DNA of 64,000 bases, from contig OU612068.1 of the NCBI GenBank assembly GCA_914767715.1, positions 14,632,001 through 14,696,000 of the forward strand. Direction: 5' to 3'. This DNA comes from Membranipora membranacea. Taxonomy: Eukaryota; Bryozoa; Gymnolaemata; Cheilostomatida; Membraniporidae. The notes beneath the pieces are model-generated. The model searched no databases. It saw only the letters and a list, made by a program, of their open reading frames with translations, and had not been told where the DNA came from. A program made the position numbers and the translations under genes. Below are positions 24,388-54,490 of the stretch, in pieces. How positions within the stretch are numbered: position 1 is the first letter of the stretch; every line of letters begins with the position of its first letter.

Positions 24388-27300
24388 TTACTCCTTCCTT
24401 CTCCATTCTTGGTTAGCTTGCTGTTGTAACTCGCTAGCTGCACCACTGAGAGCTTCTAATAATAGAGAAAAACAGTAATAATTAAAGGTAGATATAGGGG
24501 ACCAGGCAGACATCACATCTCAAGGTTTGAAAAGGATAGCATACATAAGCACAAGGCTTCATGGAACATCTAGGGAAAGTTGTTTAGTTTTGTCGCACAA
24601 ACCATTAATAAATAGTACCTTGTATCTGCATGGCGTCCATCATGTTGCTGAGATCATCAATGTTTTCACCATCTATCTCATCAGGAGGTGGTATTCCTAC
24701 ACACCCTCCTCCTTCCTCAATGTGGCTTAGCAACCTGAACATGGCAGAAAAAGAAATTAAAGGAGGCAATCATCAAACTGCCGCAGTGTTGTTATCAGTG
24801 TACCAGTTGGTAGGATCAGTGAGAAATGTCTAACGTTGTGTACTATTGTATATGTATATATATAAACACATTTTTATTGCATCAACCATCATCCAAAGAT
24901 GTTCTGCCTGTTGGCAAAAAGACCAAAAAAAACCAACCAAAATAAAATCAAGGGAATAAAACTCAATTGAATGAAAACAAAATGGTTTGACAATGCAAAT
25001 TTGAATGGATGGATGTATGTTTGTTGATGTTGTGTTATTGCTTTGTATCAAGTCAATATCCAACCGCTAGCTTGAGAAACTAACCTGAGCCAGTTAGAGT
25101 CCTTCCTGAGAATTGCTGGATTGCCGATTACAATGAGTAGTGCCTTTGCTCTGGTGATCGCCACATTGAACCTCTACAAAAGTGACAACGTTATCATATG
25201 CAATCATTTATTGGTTATAATACAAATGTACAAAATTGACATACCACCATTTTCATACTGAGCTAATCATTCAGATCACTCTGCAGTGCTAACACAGTTT
25301 AAATGTCATGCAGTGGGAGAACATCTGGTTATGCTGAATATGAGTATTTTTTTAGTATTTATTGACAACAATATTCATCATTGAAATGATGTTCTTTCAA
25401 ATATGACAGAGCAAGCAAAAAAAATTAAAATAAAAGAAAAGAAAAAAAATGCTAAGTTTTTGTAAGATAAGATGGCCATTAAAAAACAACCATAACTGGG
25501 CCAGTCCTACCTTACCTTTGGATTGCCAACGAAGCCCAGGTTAAACTTCTTATCATCATCTAGGAAAGCATCTCTACTCCTCACAGTACTGATGATGATG
25601 ATCTCCCGCTCCTGGCCCTGAAACTTCTCCACAGAACCGACAGATATATCAGCATAGCCACGCCTTCTACCTCTCTGCTGAGTCTCCAAGGCCTTCAATC
25701 CTCGAATTATCTTGTTTACCTACAGAGAAAATCGGTTTGTAGGTTTACAAAAAACCAATACAATAAGGATAAAGAATTTCATGATGAAGAGATGGGAGAG
25801 TCAAAAGGTCCTAAATTTTAGGAAATGCCGTTCTCCTTTAGTTTGAAATTTCAGATTACGCTTGAGGGCCATGAGTATGATATAAAGAACACGAGGACAA
25901 CTGCTTTGTCTGCAGGACATGCTGTATATACTGATATCCCTAATACACTGGATATACTGAATACACCCGATATCCAAATATACCGGATATAATCGAAGTA
26001 CACTGGATATACTGTATATACCCGGTATGCAAATATATCGTATACCCTATAGGAGTTTAATTTAGCTAGAGTTTAATTTCGCTATCTGGACCTGGTACTA
26101 AATTTCGCTAGTACTAAATTAAAAAAATGTCCAAGCTGGGATTTTAACCCAGGGCATAACCATCCATCTGATTGCAAGGCAGACACTTAGACCACTACAC
26201 CACACTACCTTGCATGTGTAGGTAAGGTGTATTTCTGTATAATTGTACATTGTTTATGAAACTATGGTGAGTGAGTTTAATTTAAGATACACTAAATTTC
26301 GCTACTTAGGCAATAACGCGAAAAGCGAATCCTAAATGCCGCGAAAACTAAACTCCTATAGGGTATACTGGATATACCGGATATACAGCAAAGGGTATGG
26401 TATTCATGTTGCTATGACCTTGCACACCCATTTGGTTTCATATTATTACACTTAATTTAATTCACCTCACCTGTTGATGATAGGGGGAGATAATTCCGAT
26501 ATGCTCAGCTTTAACTCTGGGTGATTTACAGTCCATCAGTTTCTCCACATAGCTGACTACTCTCATCACCTCATCAGTATTAAACCAGGAAGGAGACCGA
26601 GCCTCTCTCTCCTCCTCTCCCTGTACTCCATGGAATATCAGTGGGAATCCTTCTGTCGGTAAACCCTGAAAACCCAACGAATTCATAAATGAAATTCTGG
26701 TTTGTCTTTGCAAAAGAGTGGTGAATAGTTGTTTGAACAAGTCGACAGTGACAATACCTCGAATCAAGAGAGGTCAGTGAATTAGATTATGCACCCTGGT
26801 GGCTGTTAAACTAGTACTCAGACTTGGCTATGACTAAGCTAAGATAAGATGAATATCATTCCAAAATGTTGTGGTGTGTTCTTGGGAATTATACCGATTC
26901 AATTGTGACTGTTTAAAACTCACCTCCCACCGACAGAATTTCTCTCTCGCTAGTCTATCAGCGAAAGGCTGCAGTTCATTATCATAGAAGCACATGTTGG
27001 GTACTTCTAGTATATCAGGATGAGATCTGAAGCTTCTCACTAACTTAGTCACATATACAGGGTTGTACTGATCTGTCGTCTCATCTCGAGCATACACGCC
27101 TGTGTCCATCAACCTCTCCAGCAGGCTCATACCTGTCATAATCAAGCAGGTTTCCAGTGAAGGCATAGACATTTTGGTAAGTGTACTTGACATCATTACT
27201 GGTTTATTATATCTGGTTTCCAAATTTTAGATTCAAATATATGACAGTCTCTGTTAAAATCAATCTGGCCTATCTGATTTTGCTGCATTTTATGATTACC

Positions 27301-30300
27301 TCTTATTGACTGAGAATTCAGTTGAGCAGATAAAAATATGAAAATCGCTGACAGTGAATACTAAAATCCACAAGATCTCCATATCGACATACAAGTAGTG
27401 CATTCCATATCACACAGTGTTCCGCAAGCAAGAAGGAAATTGAAAACGCACCTAGATTATGAGCTATCGGCGATCTGACAACAGGTCCGAGTTGTTTAGG
27501 ATCGCCTGCCAGCACAACCTGCACACCAGACCTGATAGCATCTCTAATCAGGCCTGTCAGAGGTATGACAGTCTCAGGCTCTGTGGCGTGTCCAGACTCG
27601 TCTATGAATATATGTGTGAACGTGTTCACCATCTCAGCTGATACCAACCTGCGTACAATAAAACACCATTTTGTGAGATCAAGGAGTTAGAGACAACTCC
27701 TTGGTGAACTTAAAAGAATTTTGTAAACCTGTGAGACCATTTGACATTAAGCAAGGTCAAAAAGTAACCCATGTACAAGAGATATTGTTGTATGTCACTT
27801 GAGGCTAAATCAGATAAATTAGCTGGTATTGCCAAACAGCAGTTGTATAAGTGGATAGTTTGAGGTCGCAACGAATAAAGAAGAAGCTATGTAGTATGCT
27901 GTGCTACTACTGACCTGCCACTAGTGACTAATGTAGAGAGGATAATTTTCTTCTTTCTCAGATCATTCCTGGAAGGGAAGTACACTTCCATATCAGTACG
28001 ATTAGATCTGGAACTGAGGGCATGACGCATTGTAGTCGCAACTCCTGTCTTACTCTCATGGTTAGAGACCGCTTGTACCTACAAAAAGTATCACGTTCAA
28101 ATATCAAATTTAAATGTAAATGCTGAATTTATAAATCTTTACATAACGATAGCTTACAGAACACCATTAAAATGTTATTAGGCCTAAGGCAATCCCTTGA
28201 GTCTCATTTACAATTTATTATTGTATCAAAAATATATATTTATGGATTAAAGGAAAACGAAATAATTTATCAGCTTTGGCCCTATCATAGAGATTAGGTT
28301 TTCAACAACAAAAAGGTGGGAACAGTGGGATTCCATTCTAACTAAGGAACATGACGCTCGCTGTGCGTAAAGCCTGTGTTACTGTGAATTTGATGTATTA
28401 TATATAGTTAGAGCATTCATAAGGAGTTGTCCCATCATTGGACAAGTGAAGACAACAGTGACAACTGTACAGTAGGTTTATAACAATGATACATGGTTTG
28501 AAATAATGATCATCTCATTACCACCAGAGTGACAGATTAATGGCGATGCATATCATGCATCATATAAACAAAATATATCATATTATGCAAATCATATAAT
28601 ATGTATATCATATAACCATACAGTTTACTCACCTCAGGGTCAATATCATTGTATGATCTGGAAGGTGCATTTAGCCTGATAATATCAATTTTGTCTACAT
28701 GATCGATTAGCCTGTGGGTAATGAGATCAGCTGCAGCATTCTGTGGAGCACAGGCTAAGATACGGCAGTTAGGGACATCTCGATACACCTAGTGATAACA
28801 AATACCACCTTTATCTATGATGAGGCGTTGAGCCCCACGCATAATCTGCTACTCAGTGGGATGTAAAGTGCATCTAGTTATGGATGGATTTTTCTGTAGT
28901 GATTCAAGATGACTTGTTCACAATCATCTCAAGGACCTTGATCAAGATAATTTTGTGTACGTATTTCAGGATAGCTTGCTAGAGATATACTCCTTTGATG
29001 TTTCTTTCTCATATGCCATTAAGTATTTCATCTTCTGCAGACATTAATTAGCAATATAAAACAACCCACAATGCACCACTGCATACAAACTTTTCGATGT
29101 GACATCCCTAAAAATTTATAGAGGTGGGTATAGAGATGTGAGTTGTTGATTAACGGATGATTAGAATTGGGGGCCTCTTAGCATACGCCAAATCCCGAAG
29201 CATGGGCGGCAAGATATTGGGTACCTAAGAGGCGAGGCTGCAATTGCTGCGCCAGATTGCCCTCTGTTGTCCTGCCATAAATATAGTAAGTTTTGCAGTA
29301 TTTTCATTATTTCCCTCACAGTACCTGTTTGATAGCTTCTACCAGAGTCATAGTTTTACCAGTACCCGGAGGACCGTATATCAGATATGGTGCTGGTCGG
29401 GATAAACCAGCCACTATATGCTGTACAGCTAAATGCTGCTCTACATTACTCTCCACATTGGTGTTATAAAATCTGGAGAGAAGACAAAAAATCCAAGCTT
29501 GAATCAAAGTGTCAAAGAGCCAATACATCGTTACACATGCCTATAAAATATAAACAGTCTGTGATGATATTGATAATTGTACTTTGTAAACCAGGAAACA
29601 ACAAGTTATATTTACTTTGGCTCTCTATTTTCTGATCAATCACATTTCATATCACGTACCTGTATCTATGATCCTTGGGCACTAGAAGAGTTGGCAAAAA
29701 AACATTTGGGTTGGGGAAGAGAACATTCTGCAGGTTATTAGCCATTTCTGACACCGCTCTGTGCTCCATTCTCATAGACAGCCGATTGATGGTAAATTCT
29801 ATTCTGAATGTCATGTCATTCACAAACCTCTTTGTGAACCTGTAATACAAATTATAAATATATGAAGCAGGCACCACTTTGAACAATTGCTGATCATTTG
29901 AATGGTATTTATAGTAAACATGGATGAAGGAAAGAATACAAATAAAGTGGATCTTGGTAATGAAATGCTCTGTATGGATGATTAACTGGTGCATGATGTT
30001 CATGAAGTTCAATTTCAACACACTGATAGATCATTTATTATCCCCAACTCCGTATTTGAGCAGCTATCTTATTTAAAGATTAGATAAAAATAAAATTCTA
30101 AACTCAAGGCACCCGGGGAATCCCCTTGTTAGCGTGGGGAATTCTGATTTTGTCAAGAGACACCGGCAAACTGTTTCTTTATGAACTATGAGATTTGTCT
30201 TCCATAGGGTGGAATCTATAACATTATTCCCCATCAGAAAAGACGCATACTAAACTATCCATCCATTGTGTATCTCAATTATCAATTTGAGGAGATCTTG

Positions 30301-33300
30301 TACACACGTTACTTTATTGAGTTGAATTATTAGGACTATTACCTGCTACTCAGACCAAGTTTGACAGTCTCCAGCTCTGTATGGTGAACATAAGCCTCAT
30401 ACTTCATACTGTCTCCAGGATTCAGCATAATAGCAAATAGTTTGTCGCCTTTGAGTACCGATGGCCGACTCTCAGCCAAGCCTGGTACCTATATATTGAA
30501 TGGTATGATGAAGGTTACTTTATTAGCCATCGTTGAGGAATTAATCACATCAACTACCTTCCTTGTTTAAAATGCTGGTGACACTCACATTAATATCAAG
30601 ATTCTCATATAGTGATTCTTTAAATTGGCTAGTGTGCAATCCCTAAGTATCGAGATATATAATGAAACGCAGCAGTGCTTTGGGCACCAGTGCTTTAAGG
30701 GTTATTATCCAATTGTCATTTGTAACATGAGCCAGCTTCCATGGAGCTGATCTCGCTCAAGTTATGCGTGACCATAGAATGCGGAATGTCTACGTTATGT
30801 GCTCAAACTTCGCCCTAGCGGCTGGTAAAGGTATTCCATAAGTGGATATCAGGATGAAACTACAAGCGACCTGTGTTAAGTTTAAAAACTTACGCCGTAG
30901 ACTAATCACAGATTTGTGTGCTTTCTCTACGACTTGCACTAAGTAATATCATGCATTATGCTGATGCTGATGGAAGAGAAGAATTTACTGATGAGGGAGC
31001 TACTTTGAATGTGAGAGTAGGTTTTCCCTGAATAACTGATACAAACCTCAAGCACAGCAAGACCGGTCCTAGCCTCTTTTCTCATTTTGACAGAGTGCAT
31101 GGTGTACTGAGCTATATCTCTCTCCATCTGTTGCTCCTCCAGATACAACAGATTGTTGAAATATGAGGAATAATTACTGAAGTCTAACCCCTCAATCCTC
31201 AACTGACTCCTAAACAGAAAATCGATTTGATGATTTGATTGATTTGCAACAGTCAATGTCCATTAGTCAGATTTGGGGTGAGGGGGTGCCGGGCGGGGAA
31301 AATAGCTAGGGAGGCTAAGACTACATTTTGGTAATTCTCATCAATTAAATTCTGTCCACCACCGACAGACTAAAAATGTAAACTTTTTCAGATGCTGATG
31401 ATTTGATTTGAGAAAACCACAAGTCAGTATAGGGGCTAAGGGCTTGCTTCAATTTGTCACGGGACACGAAGCAGAGCTTGGTTAAAACAGTTTATAAATA
31501 GTTTCATTGAGTGTGGAACAGTTTAGCCCCTGATGCTGAAAAAAGTATGACGTAGCTTTGCTCGACAGTGTTCAATATGGTATGTGCAACTTTCTGGAAT
31601 TCCCTGGAACTTGCAGTCTTGAGCTGCATTGTAGGAAGGCCAATTCTTACTTGAGACATTCTAGAGCAGCTTCAGCCTTGGTGCTATCCTTGGCATTCTG
31701 TACACTGCTAACCAGATGCCTCACTTGACGGGTCACCAAATAACCTAGTAGGGGGACCTTCTTCTCCAGCTCAATTCTGTTCCTACAAACAGGATATCCT
31801 TGTTAATAGTAGTTATAAAATACGACTAAAAATATGAAATGGTAAGCCATGAAGAAAGATTTTAAAATTCATGGAATTCAACACTTATTATTTGTAATGA
31901 CATAATATTATGTTCATCTCTAGATCAGTATCTTTCACTCACTCGATATTTGGTTTGAGATCACTCTGGACTACTTCGAGCTCAGAGGCTTGTACGCGCT
32001 CTGGTCGGACATACGGAGCCACTGGTTGTATAACTTGGAGGATTTCAGGGTTGATGACACATTTGTAAATTATTTCTCTCAGGAACACTAGCTTCTGACC
32101 CCCTCGCCTGTTGAGTGTAAATACTATTGGAACACAAACTCTCCCGAAATCCTTCGGATTGATCTCGACCTCCACAATATATGAACCTTGAAGCAAAAAA
32201 ATTGTCTAGTTGGCTTCAGGGCATGTACCAATTTCTTGCAAATCGCCTTCATGAATCAAAGAAGGTCACAAAGTTGTCTTCAGGTACGAATTCAGATGTT
32301 TACAAGTCATGCGAGCATTACTCATGGATTAGCCATGATACTCAAGCCCTTGGTAAACTGCAAAGGCATGCCGGTAATAAACAAGTAGGATTTTTGCAGT
32401 TTTTTAATACGTTTTGAAATCTCACTCAATTACAATATCAATGAAAATCATAGACTTGATTATAATGTGATGAAAATATGACTATCTATAATTAAACACA
32501 AACACCAATTAGGGTTCTAACACAGAAGTACATGTAAGCTCGACCATATCTACTATTTCTTTTCAAAAGCTAAAGCAAAAGTATCTGAAATGGCAGGAAG
32601 TACTATTTTAACTCACGCATGGGAGGTATCACATGTGGATTGTTCCCCTTGGATACATTCTCACGGTCAGACAGTTTGATAGAGCTTTGCTTGTAGAGGT
32701 AGAAGTGGCTGAAATCGGTCAGAGTAGCTGGATTTTCCCTTGACTTGTTATGTATAATCAGTCTGATGACCTGTCCGTTCGTCCCGCCTGTTAGGATTAG
32801 CAGTGCACCAGAATCTTGCCCGGCCTCATCAAATTTGATTTCAATGTCTCCTTTATTCTGGATGAGCTGAGGTCTGTTCATGCAATGAAATGCGATGAAA
32901 AGCGATGTAATGCAATGAAATAAAATGCAATATTTGTGAATCACAATGATTTGGCTATTATAATAGTGCAGATATTATTAGCTCCTAAAATACAAGAATT
33001 GGGAAGTGATTGGTACGCTTTCTCCAGAAAGATGGCATTGGCTTTCTAGAGAAGGGGTAGGGCAATATGACCATATAGGAACCCAAATACAATTTAAAAT
33101 GAACCAAGCAGTTATTTTAAATAATTGCTCACAATTAAACATGGTTCAACAAAGTGCTAAAGAAGAATAATTATGATTCAATATGTCACCTGTTGTTTCG
33201 AAGCAGCGATCTGAGGTTATTCAGCTTGTGTTTTTGTCCCAATTGGTGCTCGTCTAAACTGACTTGAGAGTTACACCTCACATTGCACATGTCACATCGG

Positions 33301-34512
33301 AATGTGTCTGATTTCTGCCTCATTTCATTATTGGTTATTTTGAAGCTTTTATCCTTCTGATAATGGCTGATCAGCTGACGGGCATTACCATTAAACTGAC
33401 AGCCAAGCATGGGACAACAATACACATGCCCACTCCTGTCACCCTTCAAAAATAAATGTTGGATCGATGCAAAAAGCACATTGGGATTGATGCAAAAATT
33501 ATGATTCATATGGTTTACATATCTTTCACAATCAGTTTACCCTATCAGGTCCGGGTAATACATAGGCATTTTGACAGTTGTTATCTTGAATATTTTAATG
33601 TTAATAAAAGCATTTGTAACAACGTGAATCAGTGAATGTGTGAAGAAAACTATTGGCACTAGAAACTGCAAGAAAATGAAAAATACTAGATTAGTACCAT
33701 TAGAGGAGTTGTATAATGAGCGAGCATTTCCTGATGGGCTGGGGCTTTCTGCTGGTGGGAATATAGACCACTGCGGGACGGGAACCCACGATCACAGATC
33801 AGGCATACATAGTACTCTCTACTCTTATCTGAGCCGGGAGCGACTGTGAATATCAGGTGCTGTCCACCTGTAGTGTTGATGAACATTGGCTTCAGTACAA
33901 CCTGACCTCTCGAAATGAAGATCAGCTTTCTCCATTTTAGATAATTCACGACATCATTGAATGTGTATCTGAATAAAATACTTTACAATGTCAGGGTGCA
34001 AGGATATATTCCCTGTAGTAAATCATCTCAGAATCAAAACAGAGAGATGATGCTAGCTGAGGGGGGTGGTTAATAAAGATGGAGGTTCCACCATGTGGCG
34101 CATAGTAACCGATCTACATGTCAATTGACAACGACCACCGTCTGTATATATATACTTTTATTGTCAATCTACAGTCATCTTTAGGAATTTTTTTACAAAC
34201 ATATCAATATTTCTGTTATACTGAGATCAACGACCGACCGACCTAATCATGCCTATTATATATATAATTGAGAATTCAAGCCTTTTGTGCTGCTGTCTTT
34301 TTATTTTCTTCTTAGGGGGAATGATTTGTCACCGATTGGATTGCTATACAATGAGCTGCTTATGTGGCTAAGCTGTACCTGCATCTATTTCCAGGCTGGC
34401 GAGTGAAGCGACGATATCTGGCTGCCAGCTCCTTGAAGTAAAACTTGCTGAATCGATCATTATCCAGCTCTTGTAGAAAGAATATCGCCACTTTTCTCAG
34501 TTCATTATCCAT
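24388..34512 (-). CDS. mov10-like: MOV10-family RNA helicase, gene 3 (19 exons, complete)
   Basis: Paralog whose helicase exons are nearly identical to those of gene 1. Exons (high to low): 34512-34379, 33968-33698, 33443-33190, 32873-32617, 32186-31943, 31782-31651, 31209-31047, 30488-30343, 29839-29660, 29472-29325, 28788-28633, 28078-27915, 27648-27452, 27132-26924, 26665-26471, 25719-25516, 25173-25085, 24734-24619, 24455-24388 (TAA 24390-24388). The sum is 3327 nt with consistent phases, or 1108 residues. The start ATG (34512) opens [19 protein letters not shown]; the same frame upstream is closed by a stop, so no further coding exon precedes it. Finger exon 2 has CLICDRG..H..H and exon 3 has CPMLGC and CDMCNVRC. 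Motifs: GPPGTGKT (about 625), [15 protein letters not shown] instead of [41 protein letters not shown]; tail NQEWRRKE. The intron at 25720-26470 carries a TIR element with a tRNA-like relic. Predicted role: RNA unwinding and RNP remodelling in silencing. Confidence 0.9.
26045..26363. mobile_element. Non-autonomous TIR element (CCCTATAGG ends) in gene 3 intron
   Basis: The ends are inverted copies: CCCTATAGGAGTTTA at the left and TAAACTCCTATAGGG at the right. TATA abuts both sides, compatible with a target-site duplication. The flanks are themselves GATATAC-rich simple sequence (about 25930-26044 and 26364-26394), so that duplication is not proven. There is no coding sequence. The interior holds an antisense tRNA-like segment listed separately. 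It fits a MITE; the superfamily is not identified. Confidence 0.6.
26131..26214 (-). repeat. tRNA-like (Ala-TGC-like) relic inside the TIR element
   Basis: The minus strand shows an A-box-like GTGTAGTGGTCTAAG, a putative anticodon loop CTTGCAA (TGC) and a B-box GGGTTAAAATCCC. The acceptor stem is poor and there are extra bases between the anticodon and T arms. A functional tRNA is therefore unlikely. It is better read as a SINE head or a captured tRNA pseudogene. Confidence 0.5.
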
Positions 34513-37874: not shown

Positions 37875-37880
37875 GAGGAG

Positions 37881-41391: not shown

Positions 41392-44300
41392 CTATTTGTC
41401 ACTTCGCTTCCATTCTTGGTCTCCCTGCAAAAGTTCTTCACTAACCTCATCTACATTGACAGCATCTGGGAAGTAAATGAGAGGATGTGGAATGGCATGT
41501 CAAGCCTGTGTTTGAACTGAAACATCATCAGAGTTAAGCTGTTGGCAACTTATTTTCTGCGGTAGGTAACCCTCAAGGGAACAGAAATCAAGCAAAGTTG
41601 TGTATTTTTTTTACATTTGGGCGCCGTGACGAGCTAATTGAAGTTAATTTCCATAATCAGTTGTCACACACTGTTTCATACTTTGGGAATCTGAGCTTAC
41701 CTGTTAGATTCATGGAAGACATGTTATCGGTTAGCTCTTCAATTTCGTTTTCTTCTACCTCATCCGGTGGGGCGCTACCCACGTACCCGCCTCCTTCCTC
41801 AATGTGAGCCAACAGTCTATATTTTCATGAAGCATAAATATAATTACTCAAAGCAAATTTGAAGGAATACGAATGAAAAGACTTAAGAGCCAGCCACCAG
41901 GGAGTTTGGGACAAAACTCTCTGCAGCCATTACACAATAAATATTATATATTTAATATTAATTATTCTTTTAATTAATAATTACATTAAAATAAATATCA
42001 ATTATTTCTCCAACAATTATCAGCTCAAGAACATTCACTTACAAACTGCATCTTTTTTTCATTCTTCTTTTGGCACAAAACAAAAAGCATTTTTTTTCTA
42101 GAAAACGATTATGATGCCAACAAAAGTATTAAAACAAAAAGAAGGTAACTTGGGAGTTGCCATCCCTCGTTTTCTCAATGACAACACCGATGATCTCATT
42201 TTTGGTGGTACCATCATAAATTGACAAAACAGATTTCCAAAACAATAATACATTAGTGTTGATACAGACCTGTTCCAGTTCTTATCCTTCCTCAGAATAC
42301 CAGGATTACCAATCACAATGAGAAGTGACTTAGCTCGGGTTACAGCCACATTGAATCTCTAAATAATCACATAAAATGGTACAGGTGATATAATAATTCA
42401 AGTAAGTCAATATCAATAATGAAAAACAAAAATCAATTCATTTTTCAAGTTTTGTTTTACAGCTTTAAAGCTGAAATATGAAAATAGGATTCATATCAAT
42501 TTTTCCTTTTTATCAATAAGATCAAAAAACAAAAAATTGACTTGATCTTCATATTTTGATTTTTTGTTTTGGAACAAAAAGCGGTAAACAAGTTGTTTTT
42601 TGATTTTTAACATCAGTGTGCAAAAATGAAGAACAAACGATACTATGTCCCCTTATACGCTGTGCAGTGGTTTTGTCTCCGCCTCCTAATTTACATTACC
42701 CATGTGATTCTTGTTTGTCATCAATATTATTTTGTTTTGAATAGTTAGATCAGACCACCCTGGCAGGGCTATACATGTCACTACATTGCATTGCAGACTG
42801 CCCTGGCTATGTGAGACATGACACTTCAACGTTTCAGACCACCCTGACAGTGCCTGGCCTGACACTATGTTTCAGACCACCCTGGCTGTGTACACATGGC
42901 AATATTTTGTTGTTTACAAGACCTAGACATGGCACCTTATACAGCAATTGTGAGGCACCCAATTGTTGGTGACATTATGACATTGAATTGGGTAGTAGCA
43001 ATGATACTAATATTGATTTTACATGCTCTACCCATAGACGTTTAAATCATATAATGAAATGATAATAAACAGTATATAAATGTAATAATATTGATATTAA
43101 ATAACTATCGCCTTCGGAAACAACATTTTTATAAAATTTTAATCATCCTGGATTTTGCTATAAAGAGGGGTTTTCAAGCAGGGTGAACTACATGTAAGTG
43201 TTTTATGCACACAATCTACTGCTGCTGAGTTATGACATTCAAATTTATACACACTAATAATAAGTTTTAAGTTAACCCCAGCACTACTAGGTACTAGGGA
43301 GGACAAATCTTTTTGGTACCATCCCATATTTGGTTTTCCCATAGCTCTAGATATCTTCAGCTGACATTTTGACAATTTCAGCTGTACTGTCAGCGGCAAC
43401 GGTGAATAGTAATATTTTACAGTAAAATTAAATTTTCAAAATCAGTAAAACAAGTAAACATTGAGAAATTTCCATGAATATTATTTTCCTCACCTTTGGA
43501 TTACCGATGAAGCCGAGATTGAAGTCTTTATCATGAGTAAGATAAGCGTCCTGACTCCTTACAGTGCTGATTATGATGACTTCTCTCTCGTTACCCTGAA
43601 ACTTCTCTACAGATCCCACAGTTATATCAGTATAGTTACGCATCCTACCCCGAGTGTCAGCCTCTAACGCTGAGAGAGCCTTCCGTATCTTATTCACCTA
43701 GCAGGGAAAAAGAGAATAAAAATACAATCAATTAATCATACACATTATTTGAGTTTGATAGATTGGCGTGTTTTAAATGGAATGGTCAGACAACTTTGTT
43801 ATCCTCTTACTGGTTACACCTAGAATACAGAACACTCAATGAAGGCGGTGGTTTTTGCACAATTAATTGAAGTCTTTTGCAGTTCCTGAATTATCAAAGG
43901 TAACCAATTAACGAAAAGTTTATGATCTAACCATATAATACGTGGGTACAAATGCAACTAAATAACAATGATTTTTATATGTCATCAAAATATGAATGAA
44001 ACAAATGTATCGTTTGTGGTATATATCAAAATATAATATGAATGATTTCATCCGTCTGACCAGGCTTACCTGTTGATGATAAGGGGAGATTATTCCTATA
44101 TGAGCTGGTTTAACGCTCGGTTTCTTGCAGTCCATCAGTTTCTGTACATAGCTGACTACCTGCATGACCTCATATCTGTTAAACCAGGAGGGAGAACTCC
44201 CTTCTCTCTCCTCATCTCCGTTAACTCCATGAAATATCAGAGGGAAGTTCTTTGTGGGTAATTCCTACAAACATTTCATTTCAGCACCTCTATCAAAGAG

Positions 44301-47300
44301 CCAATGTTATGATCAAGTGAAGTAAAGTGAAGACGAATGTGGATCAACTCCAATTATGCCCTAGTACCATCAATATGAACAGCTGAAGGCTAAAGGGTGA
44401 GATAGTGGAAGAAAGAAGCCTTACTCAAAGTTATCTCAATCCTCATTTATAATCCTTAATTTTAAGAAAGCTCATGAAATTTCACTGATTTGCAAATTAA
44501 AGATGAAACTTTAGAATAGACAGTTTTCTGAACTCTTATTTATGCCTCAATTCGGAGTTTTCCTCTCTCCAGTTTGGTACTTTTAACCCACGCCGCATAG
44601 GAAAAACCTGCTGAAAGAGGGTTATCTTGAAAACCGCTTATGTAAGGATAAAAATGATTTTTGGTTCAGAGTCTGCACCATTAAAAACCCTGTGAGACAG
44701 GGTTTCCAAATCATTGGAGGCTTGAATGTTGATAAATCTTAATTTTAGTGACAAAACTCGTGAAAAATTCTGCCAAATTGTCCGCAAAACAGGCAGAAAA
44801 TGCTATAATTGACTATCCAAATACTAAATTTATTTCCCAAACTATGTCTATATAAGTTTTTAATGTTGCAGATTCTGAATCAAAAATAATTTACATCCTG
44901 TTATAAGCGGTTTTCAAGATGACCCTCTTTTCAGCATGTTTTTCCTATGCGGCGTGGGTTAAAAGTACCTAACTGGAGAGAGGACAACTCCGAATTGAGG
45001 CCTAAATCAGAGCTCAGAAAACTGTCTATCCCAAACTAACAAATTGAGCTAAACCAGCATGACACAATCCATGGAGTGAAAAAATAAATAGTGTAAGTAA
45101 AAAGTATATAATATAAATTACGTACCTCCCATTGACAAAACTTAGTTCTATCTACAGGATCAGCGCATGCCTCCAGCTCATTCTCATAGAAGCACACATT
45201 GGGTACTTCTAGTATATCAGGATGGGACCGGAAGCTTCTAACTAACTTAGTTACATAGTTCTCATTGAATGAGTAGACGTCTGGATTTTTCTTATACAGT
45301 TCTGTAGACATCAATCTCTCCAGTAAACTTTTCCCTGAGGAAAAAAGGAGAATGATAAATTGCTGAGTGATGTCTCAAAAGACACTTATATATCAGATTT
45401 TATAAAACCAGATAATCATTTAATGTTCATAATTTAAGATCATGATGATTTTCTCTATCTCGACAGCTTCATTTGGTCACTCTTCAATAACACACTAGCG
45501 GTGGACCAGTCAAGGGGGAGCAACCCAAAAACCGACAAGAATTTTGACTTGACGTACCTACTATAATCTCCTAAGTTTGGAGAACCCTAAGAGTTTTACC
45601 ATGAAACACCATTACAGCCTACATTACCACATTAATGCCTTACCTAGCCCTCTACTTGTAGCTATACTGGATCTGATGATAGGTCCGAGCTGTTTAGGAT
45701 CCCCAGCTAGTACTACTTGACCTCCATTTCTCATATTAACATCCAGAAGACCAGATAATGGTATAATAGTCTCTGGTTCTGTAGCATGTCCAGCCTCATC
45801 AATAAATATGTGTGTGAAATGTGAGCCCATATCTGCAGACACCAGCCTGTGTTAATAGAGAAACACTTATTATTTTTCTTAGGGAAGATAACTTCAATTT
45901 CAAGGCTAGAATATAGCAAGAGTTTCTTCCTTAGGCCATGAATAAACTTTGCACGCCCCCTCAACATTTGACCAGGAAGGTAACAGGGAGCGCAAAGTAA
46001 ACCCTAATCTGTATTTCTGATTCTATATATCTCAGCCAAATGTATCCGAGTAAAGTGAAAGTGAGATCTTTAATAAACCCCATCTGGCTGTGAACGCCTT
46101 TTAGAACAGTTATGTTAGAACAGTTTCCATGTCAATATTGTTTTCATAGAAAATTATCAAATTTCCGCATAAGAAGAGATTGTCTCGCTGTCATCAGCAA
46201 TTAGGAGGAAACTAATGCACCCAAGCCTTTGCTTTGCCAGTATGATCTTGCCAGAAATAGCAACAAAATTACGCAATATTTGATCAGTGAGGTAAACAAA
46301 GTTATCAAAGTTACTCGATATACAAGCCTGAGTTGCAAGTCTGAGGCAAGATGGGCAAGAGCTGAACAAGTCTGGCATCAAACAGACCACTCACACAATC
46401 CTCGCATCACAGACCAGACAATCTTACAATGAGTGACCTCACCTTCCACTAGTGACCAGGGTAGATACGATAATCTTTCTCTGTTTGAGTACATCCTTAC
46501 AGGGGAACTCTATCTCCATATCACCCCTCTGTGACCCTGAACCTGCACCACTGAGAGCATGCTTACCGGGTGTGGAGATACCAGACTTACTGCGATAGTT
46601 TGCTACTTTCTGGACCTGAATCAACAAACAAGTAAATTCCAAGATTACAACATTGAGTTCGACTTTATATTTGGTATGTTACAATATGATCTATTGTATT
46701 TGCTGAAGTGGGGTATTTCATGTAAGCCTTTTGTTAACTCAACCATTGACAGAAAAAATACATTACTCCTTCCATCCGGCCAATTCTATTGAGATTAAAG
46801 CGGGTCCGACACCTTTGAGCACTAAGTCAAGTGAAGTTATGGCTCCTTGAATACAATTGAGAATTAGAGTATTTGATGGTCGTCTTCGGTTAACTCAACC
46901 ATTGCTGTAAGACAAATTTACTCCTTCAATCGGAATAATTCTTTTGAGATCGAAATGGATCCGCCACCTATGAGCATAGAGTCAAGTTTAACTCATTTGA
47001 TGTTAATAATTAGACGCAACTCATGATATTAATATATATCTTACATCAGGCTCCATATCACCATAAGGCCTGGAGAGAGCGTTCAGCCTATATATATCCT
47101 TATGTACTACATGCTCTAGTAGTCTTTTAGTCATCAGGTCGGCCGCTGCATTCTGTGGAGCACAGGCTAATATACGACAATTAGGATACTCTCTGTATAC
47201 CTAAAACATTTCAAGTACAATATTTGGATTTTTGAGAAGTTGTTTTTTCGTTGCAAAATTGCCGACAAGTTACAGTATCATGGATAAATAAATGTTAATA

Positions 47301-50300
47301 GAGAGCTAGTTCATGTTTTTCATACTGACATCTCCAAGTCAGATGGGTAAGTCACATGGGTAAGTCACATGGGTAAGTAACAGGGTAAGTAACATGAGTA
47401 AGTCACATATGTAAGTACCAGGGTAAGTAACATGGGTAAGTCACATGGGTTGTAGGAAATTCCACATACAACCAACTAACCTGTTTGATAGCCTCAACCA
47501 GTGTGAAGGTTTTGCCCGTACCCGGAGGACCGTATATAAGATACGGTGCTGGTCTGGAAGTCCCGGCTACTATATGTCTCACTGCAGAGTTCTGTTCTGT
47601 GTTACCCTCTATCTTTGTGTTATAGAATCTACATTTTCAACAAACATTCATAACAGGTAAGTTCCCCAGTGGAGTACCAAGTTGAATCACCAAGTCACTC
47701 TCAAAACCCTCAAGTGATGACTGGTCAAGCAGCCAAAATACAAACAAACAAAATCAGAAAATTTTTTACCACCAAAATAAAGTTAGACTGAATACATACC
47801 TGAGTGTGAGTTTGCTGACATCCCTCAGTGGAGGTAAAGGCCTGTCGACAGGGAAGAGAACCTTCTCCAGGTGGAAGTTATTCTCACCAGCCCAGGCTAT
47901 CGCTCTATGCTCTAATTTAATAGTCAGTCTGTTCACTGTGAACTCAATTCTAAACTTCATCTTATCTATAAAGGTATCCGTGAGCCTGCAATATGCACAG
48001 ACTAAGGTTAAGCTTCATAGCACACAATCCCATTTCCTAGAATTCTTAATGATATCAAGTCTGATCTTCCTTGGATTTTCAGGTTGAAGTTACATTGTGG
48101 GAGTGTTGTTGAAATTGAACACAATCTTGTGGCAGACAAAAATCTTGTATCACTAAACTCAAAACCTTTCTTTTGGGTATTCTAAGCTCCTACCACAAAC
48201 AAATCTAATTGCTTCAAATAATTTCAGCATGATCTGTTTGTTTCTGAAATGTTTCTGTTTCTTTGTTAAAAAAAGTTCAACAGGTAAATTGCTAGGATTT
48301 CGATCAAAACAACAATCTGCCATGATGGTATCAATAAGACGTTGATGCCATACCCGTAGATATCATTTCTACAAATACGCACTCACCTGTTATGAAATCC
48401 TAGAAATACTTCATTCAGAGTAACATTATGTACGTGTCCCTCATACTTTCTGCTGTCCGTATCTCTAGAAGCGTAGAGCCTATCTCCTCTTAGTACTGAT
48501 GGCCTGTTCTCAGCTAGGCCTGGTACCTATCAAATAATACACAACCACTGTAGAAAGGCAATATTCATATATGTTCTAAAAAACACTGCTTATCTCGCTT
48601 TTCAAAATACGATCATTATGAAATTGGGATTGTGTGCTTCTTGATACCTTGGCGAGTGAAGTGACAAGCGATTTTATCATTGCGTATGTTAGAAAGGTAT
48701 CTATTGTGAACTGAGGTATGAGGGCACCTTGCAAGTCTCCTGGATGATAAGTACGTAACAATGCAATACACTGTGCCATTCCAGTTATCAATAACTACAC
48801 AATACACATACTATACATATGTATCTGAATTAATTAATTAACAATCTTCTACATATTTCAAGCAATGTCTGATGTGTCTCTACTCACCATGAGCCTGATA
48901 AGTCCCGTCCTGGTATCTTTTCTCATAGGAGCCGCCTCTAATGTGTAATGTCCTATATCTACTCTCATCTGCGTCTCCTCAAGGTACAGTAGGTTAGCAA
49001 AGTACTTACTGTAATTACTGTAATCTAACTCTCTCAGATTCAACTCAGTTCTTAAAAGTAAAGGTGAGAAACTGACATGAAATGCTGCTGAAAAGAAAAA
49101 GTATTCAAAAAAGCAATCAAACCATTATTTAGAGATCTTTGTGGCCTTATCCAAAAGGAGACTGCACTAGGGGTGGGATGGCAGCACAACCAGTAAGATC
49201 TATGGTTTCATTCTTACAGCATGAATTTGTGTGAATTTTAAATGATCATTTCATTTTTTTGTTTTTTATTTTCACTTGTAATGATACCCAGTGATCAACC
49301 GACCAGTTCAGATAAAAAGTGAATCAACAATTTTGTGTTAAAAGTTGTCTGCTCGTATTAAAAGGAAGACGACTATTAACATACTACATTTTCATGCAAA
49401 CCAGTTGAGATTGTTAAAATTACAAAATGAAGCTTCCTAGCCATTCAACGGCAAAGCTGCACAAACTTACATGATATTTTGCAGTTTCTCATGAGTGCTC
49501 TCCCCTGCTTGTTTCAGCTCATGCAGGCTATCACCGATATAACGAGGCACTGTATACTGTGGTAACGCCAGACTCTTCTCCAGAGCATAGTTCTTGCTAC
49601 AAATAAATTAAATTAAGATCGAATATAGTCAAACAAGTAGTGAGTTATTGTACACTAGCCACAACGAAGGAAAACATATCTTACCATTGAACTAATATGC
49701 ATGCTATAACAGCGTATTGCAAATCAAAGTACGATAACTCACCGATGAAAATGATTATTACAAGGTAAGAAAATAAACATATAATATAACATATAATTAC
49801 AATATAACAACTAATATGAATACTACCAGGATGATATTTTCTGCCAGAATAGAAGGTAAATAATGAGAGTGACAATCATCAATGGAAAATAAATCACACA
49901 TCCAGACAAACTACAGCGACTTATATTGGTAGAGAGTAGTACTCACTCTATATCTGGAGTGTTATCACTTCTCACCACATTCAGCTTGGGTATATCTCTC
50001 TTTGCAGGTTTACTGTACGGAGTTACAGGCTGTAAGTCTGAGAATATCTGTACATTGTGTACAGCTTTGTATATTACCTCTCTCAGTATCCTGAACCTGT
50101 TACCCTTACCACTTGTGAAAGAGAATATGAGGGGGACTGTCATACGCCCGTAATTGTGAGGCCTGACTGTCATATGCACCCAGTATGAGGCTAAAAAGAG
50201 ACATGTGAGTCGTGTGAGCCGATGCAAGACAAATAAACTCATTTCAAAAGAGCTATAAAATACTGAAGTATAACAGGGGACAGGGGTAGTGGGCGGTCAT

Positions 50301-53300
50301 CAATAAATACACCGTAAGTATGAGAGATAAACATTTCATATATAGAAAATTTACACATACTGACTGAGTTGAATTCTTTTTTTACCACATTTTCAACCAC
50401 TAGTTGACTGGTAAATTCAACTGAGACATTAGTAGCCATGGTCTCTAGCAGAGATAGTGCAAGGTAATGAGAATACCATCATTTGGGTGATTATGTGGTA
50501 ACAGGTTCTTTGAGTTGTGAGTGCATGTGACAATTTATGAATGGCTGTATCTGGAAAATGCCTTGCAGTCAGATTTGGCATCTTTAATTAATTAAGTTAA
50601 TAGTTGTTTGAGTAGGTTATTGCCTCAAATATGTTTTCATTCCAATCCTCATCTAAACATTCAGTCCAACGACTTGATAACTAGAGTCAATGACAAGATA
50701 CTGTGGTTACACCAGCAGAGCATTGATTTTCGGAGAGACAGCAGTGCTGGCAGTGGACACTATAGGGTACATAATAATCATTATGCTAGGGCTTGATACA
50801 TTTCGGGGATTTGGAAAGTATTTATAATATTTGCTAGAGAAAGAATTGACACCCATAGACATGTAATATTGACAGCTGTTATCAAATTTGTAAATTTACT
50901 CACAGTTTTTAGGGATGACTTGAGTCCTCCTACAGCTGGTCACCTGACCTGAGTCTGACAGAACTACACTCCTCGTATCGTGTAGTAAGAAGTGAATACA
51001 TGTCTCAAACTTAACAGGTGTGTCGCCTTTGTTTGTGACTTTGAACTTGAACATTTTGGATTGGCCCACATTGCCGATCACTGACACAGTAGAAGACGAG
51101 GTGGTCTCTTGCTCCTGCTCACTATTCTCATATGATGTGACAACTTCTACTCCCTTCTTGTCTTGTATTAAAGCAGCTCTGAAAGCAAAATACACAAAGA
51201 ATCATATCACACATCAACGTTGCTATTGCTAATCATTAAAGGGTCAGTCCTATTGGAAAAGTGGATATATTACCCCAGTGAATCAAATATTGTGAGTTCA
51301 TAGGGCAAATAAAAATTAACAAAAAATGAAAATTGTGGAAAATAGCAATTAGTTTTTTTTCAATTATTTTAGCAAGGATCATAGTAGATCATAGTGGTCA
51401 GGGGGAGGCAATAAATCACTATGATCCAATTTTTCAGACTTTGCAGCAGTTTTACTGCAACTAGGTTCACAGGCAGTTTTATTTCATATGCCTTAATGAC
51501 TTCTCCGCCTAAGATCTTTAAAACCATACTAAACATGGCCTAGTAGGACTGTCACTTTAACACAACTCAACAGATCGACGAAAGTTGTTTTATGGGATGA
51601 ATGGAATGCTTTATTTTCCTTTACAGCAGTGCTTTTGAGTAGTGTGCAAAGGTAAAGTGGGCATTTACTTTTGTTAGCATCGGCAGTTTTTAACAGCTAA
51701 CAAACACACTTTGTGAAATCAAAGCAGGCATTTTTATGCAGCAGTCTGAGCACATGCATCTTATCATAATTCACTCTAAAGATTTGAACCGATATTATTC
51801 CAACAAAACTGGATAACACAACGTTTGAAGTACAACGAACTTACAGCACAATTAATTTATTAATTAATTGATTAGTTAACTTATTTAAAAACACATCGCT
51901 AAACTTAGATTAGAAATTACCTCCCCTCCCTGTATCCGCTCCTGAACTCGTTAACCTTGTGTCGTCTCCCCAGTTTATGCTGCACCATGTTACCTTCAGA
52001 GGTAGTTCTGATTGAGCACACCTCACAGTATAGTGGGTCCTCAGACAGAGGTATAGCAGCACCGCTGACTGTATCTCTGGGTGCTTCTCCTCTCTCAGCC
52101 AGTGTGAGCGTCTTGGATACCTTGATGAACAATTCTCGTTCATTCTAAATGAGTCGATAAATAGCTGGGTTAGTATGACTACTACCGTTAGTAGGACCAT
52201 AGAAGAGGGCAACAACTATTAAAGCTTTGGTTGGTGCAGGGAGAATGGTTGGTTGGTTGGTGGGAGTCACAACTTACACAAAACAACAACTGTGAATTAT
52301 ACACAAGGGAAACCGAAAGAACTATATCTGCACTATCTAGATATCAAGATATTTGTCATTGGTATGTTTTTAGGGCTTGCGTGTCACTGCAACTTTGAAG
52401 ATCCTGATAACAAGTTTATGTGCACTTTGAGTGTACCCTATATGCCTACTCCAGATTACTAGTATACACTACTAGCCTTGTCACCCGGCAATTTTTTATT
52501 TTGGGAGTACAAACAAAACAAGCAGCTGTGGGACAAGTCTAAGTATACACATAGAGATCATATCAATGTTAACACAATGAATGACTAGGATATCTGGTCT
52601 ATAATGAATCATGTAACTAAGGAAACTGTTGGAATATTAGTATGACACAAACTTACTGGAGTGATACGAGGCATCTTCCTGGCTTGTTGTTGATGGCTGT
52701 CAGAGTTCTGATGAGTGGCTAGGCCATGATTAGTAGATAGGCCCCTGTCACACAGCCGACACACAAAGAATACTCCGGTTTCCTCTGACCCGGGGTTCAC
52801 TGTAAATACTAGATCTTCCTTCAGGTCTATGAATATTGGCTTGATTATAACCATTCCTCTTTCAAAATATACATACTTCTTGCTGCGTAGATACTGTATA
52901 ACTTGTTGAAACGCATACCTGAAATAATAAAAAAAATAAATATCATCCAGGAATCTATGCATAGGATGACAGTATTATCCTGGTGCAGAATTCCCTCTCA
53001 GAATGGATGGGGTTTCTAGACTCTACTCGCATATATTTCGACGAGATTGATTCAGCCATCACTAACCTTCTGGCTGCAGGGACGGACTTGCAGAAACTAA
53101 TATAGGCATTGCCGAGATCAGACCTATAATATCTAGAGAACTGGTAAAGGAATGTATCTAGCGTCTTTAAAAATCTGTTGGCAGTTCTTTCCAACGTCTG
53201 TGCTGGTGAGTTGGCACCAATTTCTCCAACTAAAATACAAGACATATGAATTGGGAAATTTATTGATGAAGAAAGCAACACTTGTGGATACTCGTTGAAA

Positions 53301-54490
53301 AATATACTGTCTAATAGGCTACATCATTACTACCAAGTGACTAGGTACAGGTGGAATGCGGGTGCATCGCTTAATTAATATACTTCCATAAACATGATGC
53401 TACATTGCTCGAAGCAGACAATAAAAATAGTACTGCGTTAAAAGTATCCATACTCACCTCCATTGGCAGTTGCATGACCAGTGACAGGAGCAGGTCTATT
53501 AGTCTGATCCTTCACACCAGAATGCTTCACCAAACTCCCAACCCTCTCGTAAGCTTGTCCATCCTTCATGCCCAGTCTAGTAGTGAGGTGATGAATCAGA
53601 GAATCCTTCTGAGGAGCAGATGCCTGCAGTCTGAGTTCGCTCCCCTTCCTTACAGGTGGGTTATTGAAATAATCCCTTGCCTTTCTCACTCTCTCCATGT
53701 ATCCTGATGGCAGGGGACTCTTCACTTGGTTGATGTGAGTGATTGCTCTCTCTATTGATCTATGCTGCTTGATGAGTTGGAAAGCAGTGACTTGGCCAAC
53801 ATTTTTTATGTTGTCACAGAAGTCACATCCGAGCATGATGCAGAGATCTATGAGCTCAGTGCGTCCTAAATTTAGTTGCCTCAGCACATCTTGCAGTTTT
53901 ATTTCAATAGCATGAGTTTTACCACTGCAAAATGTCAGCTTCTTCAACAGGACAGCTCCACCAAATGGTAAAACATCCGAGTCTTCGCTCCCTACAGCAT
54001 AACATCGACCGGACTTAACAAGCTCTACGCATTGAGCTTCGGCTTCCTCTGGAGCTTGAACGTAAGCCACGCCCATCAGATCAAACAACTCTTTACAGGC
54101 TTTTACATGCTCATGTGTAACCTTCATTGTCTGTTTGGCCAATCGTATCGCCTCCTCATCACGGTCAAGGTCATTCACTGACGCAGCAATCTGGTCAGCG
54201 GCCTTTTTTCTCCTAAGCTCACGCCTTGCCAATGTCTCCGTTTTTATATCCGGTGGCTTACCATCAAAAACATACACTGGTGTTATGCCATTCTCAATCA
54301 GATTTACCGTGCGGAGGAACAACCCGATGACCATCGAAGGCGTATCTTGTTGTGTGGTGGCAAGAAACTGATAAATGCTGACACTAGCATCTATTGCTAT
54401 ATGCTTCTCTGACAGCTGCTGGGCGCTGATCTCACTGATAGATGATGGTGCATGCTCTCTCAATATCTTCATGAGATTTTGGATACCCAT
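41392..54490 (-). CDS. Predicted FEN1-zinc finger-MOV10 helicase fusion, gene 4 (20 exons)
   Basis: Predicted single polypeptide of 1460 residues joining a flap-endonuclease domain to a MOV10-family RNA helicase. Exons (high to low): 54490-53458 (FEN1), 53229-53067, 52918-52657, 52144-51921, 51178-50904, 50190-49947, 49596-49471, 49050-48888, 48526-48387, 47985-47800, 47628-47481, 47200-47045, 46615-46443, 45846-45644, 45334-45126, 44264-44070, 43697-43494, 42358-42270, 41816-41701, 41465-41392 (TAG). The sum is 4383 nt and every junction is phase-consistent. Residues 1-344 are FEN1-like, about 345-398 a helical MOV10-type N-terminal exon, and about 450-475 a C2H2 finger (CRLCDRG..H..H). A second finger ([10 protein letters not shown]) follows near 535, while the CPxxGC finger of the paralogs is lost. 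Helicase motifs: GPPGTGKT (about 970), [52 protein letters not shown]; tail QEWKRSDK. The alternative is two genes, with FEN1 ending inside the first intron; transcript data would decide. Confidence 0.8.
42745..42905. repeat. Short irregular tandem repeat in gene 4 intron
   Basis: The phrase CAGACCACCCTGGC or close variants recurs at intervals of about 40-80 bp, with related CCTGGC/CCTGAC words between, in the intron between the exons ending at 43494 and starting at 42358. No coding potential goes with it. Confidence 0.5.
44517..45028. mobile_element. Foldback MITE, long copy (512 bp)
   Basis: A non-coding element in a gene 4 intron. It begins TAGACAGTTTTCTGA and ends TCAGAAAACTGTCTA, so the ends are inverted repeats bounded by TA. 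The inverted similarity runs about 150 bp inward: AATTCGGAGTT, GGTACTTTTAACCCACGCC and AGGGTTATCTTGAAAACCGC recur as reverse complements in the right half. A TA boundary suits a Tc1/mariner-type target site. A second copy lies at 56928-57158. Confidence 0.8.
46731..47005. repeat. Diverged tandem duplication, period about 156 bp
   Basis: Two related units begin with GTTAACTCAACCATTG at about 46733 and 46889. Both continue with TTACTCCTTC, ATTCTWTTGAGAT and GAGCAYWRAGTCAAGT words in the same order. They lie in the gene 4 intron between the exons ending at 47045 and starting at 46615. Confidence 0.7.
47338..47452. repeat. 15-bp minisatellite (GGGTAAGTCACAT-type units)
   Basis: About eight imperfect units of roughly 13-15 bp built on GGTAAGTMACAT, located in the gene 4 intron next to the Walker A exon. 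On the plus strand each unit contains a perfect GGTAAGT splice-donor word, but gene 4 is transcribed from the other strand. Confidence 0.85.
53458..54490 (-). CDS. FEN1-like: FEN1-like flap endonuclease domain (exon 1 of gene 4)
   Basis: FEN1 normally removes 5' flaps during DNA replication and repair in the nucleus. This single exon encodes 344 residues from [10 protein letters not shown]. All seven metal-ligand acids of FEN1 are present at the expected places: D34 (AIDAS), D76 (VFDGKPP), E149 and E151 (APEEAEA), D170 and D172 (SEDSD), D223 (GCDFC). The loop after D34 is about ten residues shorter than in human FEN1. The fold extends through the helical end around residue 322, but the QGRLDDFF-type PCNA-interacting peptide and the basic tail are absent. 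The exon ends after GCCAATGGAG in a GTGAGT donor (phase 1). Read-through would add six residues and stop at 53438. Being intronless, it could be a captured retrocopy or an original one-exon FEN1. Whether a normal FEN1 exists elsewhere cannot be seen. Confidence 0.9.

What the first reader, a model, noticed from the sequence alone, without database searches (positions are those of the whole stretch)
53067..54490. FEN1 nuclease exon spliced in frame onto a MOV10-family helicase
Seen directly: a 344-codon FEN1-like exon ends in a GTGAGT donor after one base of a codon. The next minus-strand acceptor, only 228 bp away, opens an exon whose first two bases complete that codon, and it encodes the MOV10-type N-terminal exon found in paralogs 2 and 3. 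The assembled 20-exon frame is 4383 nt, exactly 1461 codons including stop. Known: FEN1 cuts 5' flaps; MOV10/Armitage helicases act in RNA silencing, piRNA biogenesis and retroelement control. I know of no described FEN1-MOV10 fusion. Inference: a single-chain unwind-and-cut enzyme, perhaps acting on retroelement replication intermediates or R-loops.
Basis: partly seen in the sequence, partly recalled or inferred. Interest (0 to 1): 0.92.

Follow-up and report, generated by a model that had tools for sequence, protein, structure and literature searches.

The report
Flap nuclease fused to MOV10 helicase
In what looks like a bryozoan (moss animal) genome, a DNA-cutting flap nuclease appears to be spliced onto the front of an RNA helicase of a family that restrains jumping genes, giving one predicted cut-and-unwind protein for which we found no description; whether the joined message is really made still has to be shown with RNA.

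Summary
A 1033-nt FEN1-like exon (54490-53458, minus) ends in a phase-1 donor; the next helicase exon (53229-53067) completes the codon, and 20 exons give 4383 nt with one terminal stop. The donor outscores all 784 other GTs of the gene span; the acceptor is weak (132 of 850 background AGs score as high). The helicase is MOV10-type and groups with Watersipora and Bugula MOV10s, so probably bryozoan. The nuclease belongs to a separate FEN1-like clade with four more intact, unnamed members at 67-97% identity. They keep the catalytic residues but lack the 3'-flap loop-wedge (6 of 6; 0 of 115 canonical FEN1s) and the PCNA-binding box. No listed database protein joins the halves. No transcript was available; intron 1 holds an in-frame ATG and an AATAAA, so two separate products remain possible. 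Best reading: a real FEN1L-MOV10 fusion gene (about 0.7), perhaps a nuclease tethered to an RNA helicase for retroelement or RNA-DNA-hybrid control. That function is inferred.

The parts
53458..54490 (-). Exon 1: FEN1-like (FEN1L) nuclease, 344 codons + 1 base, starting MGIQ
53230..53457 (-). Intron 1 (228 bp), GTGAGT..TTTTAG; holds the in-frame TAA of FEN1L read-through (53440-53438), AATAAA (53264-53259) and a helicase-frame ATG (53245-53243)
53067..53229 (-). Exon 2: N-terminal exon of the MOV10-type helicase, entered in phase 1, no in-frame ATG inside
52657..52918 (-). Exon 3: holds a C2H2-like zinc-finger pattern (by eye; no Pfam zinc-finger match listed here)
51921..52144 (-). Exon 4: zinc finger (zf-C2H2_jaz / zf-met)
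49947..51178 (-). Exons 5-6 (51178-50904, 50190-49947): MOV-10 Ig-like domain
47800..49596 (-). Exons 7-10: MOV-10 helical and beta-barrel domains
41392..47628 (-). Exons 11-20: helicase core ([12 protein letters not shown]) to the stop codon at 41392
24611..34512 (-). MOV10 paralog 3, own ATG at 34512 in its first coding exon, no FEN1L found
11141..22298 (+). MOV10 paralog 2 with a different putative N-terminal extension exon (11141-11645), joined in the same phase 1; has an in-frame TAG at 13067-13069
251..8276 (+). MOV10 paralog 1; its start lies outside the window

Best explanation
The locus is a chimeric gene of a bryozoan-like animal. A divergent FEN1 duplicate (FEN1L) serves as first coding exon of one member of a local MOV10 helicase cluster, and splicing joins them into one protein of 1460 residues. 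Shown by sequence: the open frame, the consensus donor, intact nuclease and helicase catalytic motifs, and a FEN1L clade kept in several sources. Inferred: that the fusion transcript is the main product and that the protein works as a tethered machine. The helicase would load on single-stranded RNA and move 5' to 3' towards a duplex junction. The N-terminal nuclease, on a linker of roughly 40 residues, would cut the 5' flap strand there. The most likely setting is RNA-DNA hybrids and flaps made by retroelements. Loss of the loop-wedge and of the PIP box would free the nuclease from 3'-flap checking and from PCNA, so from replication.
For: Exact 20-exon frame. Best donor score of the gene span against 784 other GTs. 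Pfam domains of both halves. All seven carboxylates plus G2, Y40, K93 and R100 kept in the window copy and P0121-P0124; loop-wedge deleted in 6 of 6 and PIP pattern absent in 6 of 6, P0125 being truncated. FEN1L clade 100/100 in a tree of 40 rows. Core conserved at 318, 269, 240 and 218 of 322 residues against a fast-changing tail. ORFs of 3 of 4 relatives end soon after N-G-G-E or N-G-G-K, which G|GTGAG or G|GTAAG would encode; shuffled tails give GG[EK] in 0.7-2.7% for these three. Exon 2 has no in-frame ATG of its own. Paralog 2 can enter the matching exon in phase 1 too. FEN1 has Gly2 of its processed N terminus in the active site (passage of PMC5490271) and XPG with an added N-terminal Met was inactive in one assay (passage of PMC7515719), which fits the nuclease being first.
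Against: No RNA evidence: the junction query found no spanning protein among 4 hits from 3575 candidates, though it also missed P0123 and P0124, so its reach was limited. The acceptor is weak, and ATG 53245 and AATAAA 53264 allow two genes. The GGK tail of P0124 could be a remnant of the canonical GGKF-type tail, seen in 24 of 115 canonical FEN1s, and P0123 lacks the motif. The relatives' DNA and organisms are unknown, so linkage of FEN1L to MOV10 is seen in one locus only; neither nor one search listed a Watersipora or Bugula FEN1L. Against strong flap cutting: in human FEN1 L53A lowers the rate 1000-fold, R47A 300-fold and T61A 50-fold (passage of PMC6125683), and FEN1L has none of these three residues. 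Substrates are untested.
Confidence: 0.68

Rival explanations
1. Two tightly packed tandem genes. FEN1L reads through to the stop at 53440-53438 (350 residues) and is polyadenylated after the AATAAA at 53264. The helicase starts at ATG 53245 from its own promoter.
For: In-frame ATG and AATAAA are present. Stand-alone MOV10s begin about 45-60 residues before the same motif, as a start at 53245 would. The weak acceptor is matched by 132 of 850 background AGs. FEN1L ORFs of 343-352 residues recur in databases, and none of the listed hits is joined to a helicase.
Against: The best donor of the gene span would be idle. Residues after the donor are poorly kept: 3, 2, 0 and 2 of 6 identical in the four relatives. 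ATG 53245 has C at -3 and T at +4, a weak start context, against A and G for the FEN1L ATG (rule recalled). An ATG in 31 open codons and an AATAAA in 228 A+T-rich bp are both fairly likely by chance (own estimate).
Confidence: 0.2
2. Both (overlaps with the best explanation): alternative processing gives a FEN1L-only product, by intron retention or early polyadenylation, and the full fusion.
For: An in-frame stop, AATAAA and strong donor coexist in one short intron.
Against: No transcript data either way.
Confidence: 0.25
3. FEN1L is a decaying retrocopy that happens to lie before the helicase and does nothing.
For: Single coding exon and a long stem branch of 2.03. P0125 reads as a broken copy or a misassembly. 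Loop residues that matter for rate in human FEN1 are gone.
Against: The catalytic centre is kept in the window copy and in 4 relatives down to 67% identity, and the core is conserved while the tail drifts.
Confidence: 0.04

Closest known systems
Flap endonuclease 1 (FEN1), e.g. PDB 9rci and 3q8k (3q8k is human by a passage; 9rci taken as human)
   Same: XPG_N and XPG_I domains and all catalytic residues tested; starts MGI; 123 identical of 300 aligned residues to the 9rci chain
   Different: Loop-wedge residues 49-58 deleted, R47 and T61 not kept, PIP box absent, C terminus runs into a strong splice donor
MOV10 RNA helicase, closest by identity: Watersipora subatra P0006/P0007 and Bugula neritina P0009
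   Same: MOV-10 Ig-like, helical and beta-barrel domains, zinc finger, AAA_11/AAA_12 core; one clade 100/98
   Different: No nuclease in those three proteins, though P0007 starts at query residue 605 and may be a truncated model; here FEN1L and a linker precede the helicase
DNA2, a natural nuclease-helicase (features recalled; its helicase matches weakly)
   Same: Superfamily-1 helicase and flap-processing nuclease in one chain
   Different: DNA2 has an unrelated nuclease domain and a DNA helicase
MOV10 with RNase H2 in LINE-1 control (passage of PMC10174503)
   Same: Helicase and nuclease acting together on RNA-DNA hybrids
   Different: Two separate proteins and a different nuclease; the analogy is mine

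Membership tests
FEN1 / Rad2-XPG 5' nucleases | XPG_N and XPG_I domains above Pfam cut-offs | tested here: met
   80.6 and 91 bits against cut-offs 22 and 24.9
FEN1 / Rad2-XPG 5' nucleases | Seven active-site carboxylates, Lys93, Arg100, Gly2, Tyr40 (human numbering) | tested here: met
   All present in the window copy and P0121-P0124; P0125 loses D233
Canonical FEN1 | Alpha2-alpha3 loop-wedge for 3'-flap recognition | tested here: not met
   Residues 49-58 gapped in 6 of 6 FEN1L (nine of ten in P0124); none of 115 canonical hits has five or more gapped. Role from passages of PMC6125683
Canonical FEN1 | C-terminal PIP box for PCNA | tested here: not met
   Pattern Q..[LIVM]..[FY][FY]: 0 of 6 FEN1L (P0125 truncated), 108 of 115 canonical, none in the whole fusion
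FEN1 / Rad2-XPG 5' nucleases | 5'-flap cleavage activity | not testable with these tools
   Needs protein
MOV10 helicases | MOV-10-specific domains plus AAA_11/AAA_12 core | tested here: met
   PF21633, PF21634, PF21635, PF13086, PF13087, all above cut-off
MOV10 helicases | Groups with MOV10s in a tree | tested here: met
   In the bryozoan MOV10 clade, 100/98, 7 of 20 rows; MOV10L1 proteins were not in the tree
MOV10 helicases | 5'-3' RNA unwinding, retroelement restriction | not testable with these tools
   Known for other MOV10s (title of Gregersen 2014 seen in a reference list; PMC10174503 passages)
FEN1L-MOV10 fusion | Transcript spanning 53458/53229 | tested here: inconclusive
   No spanning protein among the listed hits; no RNA reads available

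The most novel reading that the evidence does not exclude
A bryozoan lineage evolved a dedicated single-chain RNA helicase and relaxed-specificity flap nuclease. A FEN1 duplicate lost 3'-flap proofreading and PCNA binding, was captured as first exon by a MOV10 gene in an expanding cluster, and now destroys RNA-DNA flap intermediates of retroelements in cis.
Probability: 0.3. Interest if true: 0.82.

Novelty: new variant of a known kind. Interest (0 to 1): 0.62.

Why it matters
FEN1 is usually described as tied to PCNA (recalled) and to a strict 3'-flap check (PMC6125683 passages). A conserved FEN1-like clade that dropped both while keeping its active site is a natural test of what those parts do. 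Joined to MOV10, it would be a one-chain version of the helicase-plus-nuclease teamwork reported for MOV10 and RNase H2 on LINE-1 hybrids (PMC10174503 passage), and it suggests a route by which DNA-repair nucleases could enter transposon defence.

Tried and rejected
Retrocopy or pseudogene of FEN1: thought unlikely because the catalytic centre and core are conserved. FEN1L from a virus or prokaryote: two viral-contig scans found no relative, and the one genome contigs locus was an archaeal nuclease at 33%. Origin of FEN1L within animals could not be resolved because of the long stem. Splicing of exon 1 to another exon of the model: only exons 2, 6, 15 and 20 accept phase 1. The higher-scoring acceptors at 53123, 53318 and 53407: 53123 and 53318 would put the helicase out of frame, and 53407 lies before in-frame stops (own reading). 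An acceptor 6 nt inside exon 2 (53223) would also keep the frame. Rfam on 53000-55200 and the bacterial promoter scan gave nothing useful. Literature: searches found 0 papers; two searches listed 8 and 4 papers holding both names, none on a fusion by title (listings only).

Not obtained: the genome search on the window's own assembly (11 attempts) and structure prediction (7 attempts) did not complete, so a canonical FEN1 elsewhere in this genome and a fold of the nuclease are unchecked.

Mended then: the ATG distance (16, not 15 nt), the tail length (1-12, not 1-13), the ranking of the bryozoan hits, the circular use of the fusion's own exon-2 phase, and the rate loss of loop mutants added against my reading.
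Full report
WHAT IS THERE. On the minus strand, 54490-53458 encodes an intact FEN1-like nuclease of 344 codons plus one base. It ends in GAG|GTGAGT. The next exon, 53229-53067, supplies the two missing bases and leads into a MOV10-type helicase. I rebuilt all 20 exons: 4383 nt, one stop at the end, every intron GT..AG. An in-frame TAA lies upstream of the FEN1 start with nine codons between, so MGIQ is the likely start.

HOW GOOD IS THE JUNCTION. With a weight matrix from the other introns of the gene, the donor at 53457 scores above all 784 other GT sites of the span and second among the 19 donors. The acceptor scores low: 132 of 850 background AGs do as well, and it ranks 17th of the gene's 19 acceptors. 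Phase agreement alone is weak evidence. Intron 1 also holds a stop of the FEN1 frame, an AATAAA at 53264 and a helicase-frame ATG at 53245, which begins 16 nt before exon 2. Exon 2 itself has no in-frame ATG, so the helicase must start in FEN1L, at that intronic ATG, or in an exon not recognised here.

WHOSE GENOME. In the search with the whole protein (997 hits from 8000 scored candidates, 120 listed) the five highest-scoring hits are long fish proteins; four of them align to the helicase twice or more and so sum their scores (P0001-P0005). By identity and coverage the best are Watersipora subatra (47% over 73%, 55% over 59%) and Bugula neritina (45% over 72%) MOV10. In a tree of 20 rows, with trimmed pieces for the window's paralogs and 13 other MOV10-type proteins chosen from the list, the window's four helicases and the three from those bryozoans form one clade (100/98). 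I infer a bryozoan; the species is not established.

THE NUCLEASE IS A SEPARATE FEN1-LIKE CLADE. A search with the FEN1 exon gave 2437 hits, 120 listed. Five stand apart: P0121 (97%), P0122 (82%), P0123 (73%), P0124 (67%) and the broken P0125. Their organisms are not named. The other 115 listed are FEN1s at 35-47%. With P0121-P0124 the window copy forms a clade with support 100/100 and a stem of 2.03 changes per column, against 35 of those 115. In human numbering, the seven carboxylates, G2, Y40, K93 and R100 are all kept in the window copy and P0121-P0124; P0125 loses D233 after a frame break. Residues 49-58, the loop-wedge, are missing in 6 of 6 (nine of ten gapped in P0124); none of the 115 canonical hits has five or more gapped. 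R47 is changed or gapped in 6 of 6 (4 of 115 canonical have G there). A PIP-box pattern is in 0 of 6 and 108 of 115. Passages of PMC6125683 say that this loop decides 3'-flap recognition, that substrates without a 3' flap are cut hundreds of times more slowly by normal FEN1, and that L53A loses most of this specificity but also 1000-fold in rate; they also note a truncated loop in bacterial homologues whose 3'-flap pocket is otherwise kept. A passage of PMC7515719 describes an acid block unique to FEN1 next to the wedge. So this clade should have other substrate rules and no PCNA tie, and unless it has compensated it may be a slow flap cutter. That is inference.

CONSERVATION. Between window and relatives, 318, 269, 240 and 218 of 322 core residues are identical, while the 22-residue tail keeps 16, 9, 7 and 8. 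That is the pattern of a working domain followed by a linker. In P0121, P0122 and P0124 the ORF runs N-G-G-E or N-G-G-K and then stops within 1-12 residues, as translation into an intron after G|GTGAG or G|GTAAG would. P0123 does not show it. As a control, 24 of 115 canonical FEN1s have GGK near their end, so P0124 is ambiguous; no canonical one has GGE there. The relatives' DNA was not held, so the donor in them is inferred from protein letters.

THE CLUSTER. Four MOV10 genes lie in the 64 kb: paralogs 1 and 2 on plus, paralog 3 and the fusion on minus. The exon that matches exon 2 can be seen in two paralogs. Paralog 3 starts with its own ATG in it. Paralog 2 can enter it in phase 1 from a different upstream exon coding 168 Ser/Asp-rich residues. 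The match of these exons rests on position and phase more than on sequence, and paralog 2 has an in-frame TAG in its next exon, so it may be a pseudogene. The shared phase-1 entry makes the acceptor at 53229 somewhat more credible than its score. Exchange of first exons in this family is a guess.

IS IT KNOWN. None of the 120 listed hits to the whole 1460-residue protein has an alignment that starts before residue 300. A 439-residue query across the junction gave 4 hits, all FEN1-type proteins; it missed P0123 and P0124, so its reach was limited. Because proteins were filtered by length and lists were cut, this is not proof of absence. Literature searches found no paper on such a fusion (listings only).

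MECHANISM. Shown: both active centres are intact in sequence. From paper passages: MOV10 inhibits LINE-1 and, with RNase H2, removes RNA in L1 RNA-DNA hybrids (PMC10174503); it is a 5' to 3' helicase (a cited title); FEN1 threads a single-stranded 5' flap and has Gly2 of its N terminus in the active site (PMC5490271). Inferred: a helicase moving 5' to 3' on a flap strand would carry a tethered 5' flap nuclease to the junction where it cuts. The polarity fits. Retroelement intermediates are the likeliest target because of the MOV10 half. I put 0.68 on a real fusion gene, and about 0.3 on the retroelement machine.

Noticed in passing
45670-45849 and 20061-20240: Exon 14 of the fusion and the matching exon of paralog 2 are 97% identical over 180 bp, while the other matched segments of the two genes are 39-73% identical in protein: looks like gene conversion.
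   Followed up: partly
13067-13069: Paralog 2 has an in-frame TAG in the exon after its N-terminal exon, so it may be a pseudogene or be spliced otherwise.
   Followed up: partly
251-8276 and 34512-24611: Paralogs 1 and 3 are recent inverted duplicates, matched segments 85-97% identical in DNA.
   Followed up: partly
36416-37986: Two overlapping ORFs of a PIF1-type helicase, perhaps a mobile-element remnant, between the fusion and paralog 3.
   Followed up: no
44510-45035 and 56921-57159: Fold-back (palindromic) repeat inside intron 15 of the fusion with a related copy upstream of the gene: perhaps a small DNA transposon.
   Followed up: no
37881-38537 and 38610-39266: Tandem duplication of 657 bp at 97% identity.
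   Followed up: no
11141-11645: Paralog 2 may carry a 168-residue Ser/Asp-rich N-terminal extension; the ORF has no Pfam match.
   Followed up: no
59944-62817: Two long minus-strand ORFs (363 and 519 residues, the second looking coiled-coil-like by eye) without Pfam match.
   Followed up: no
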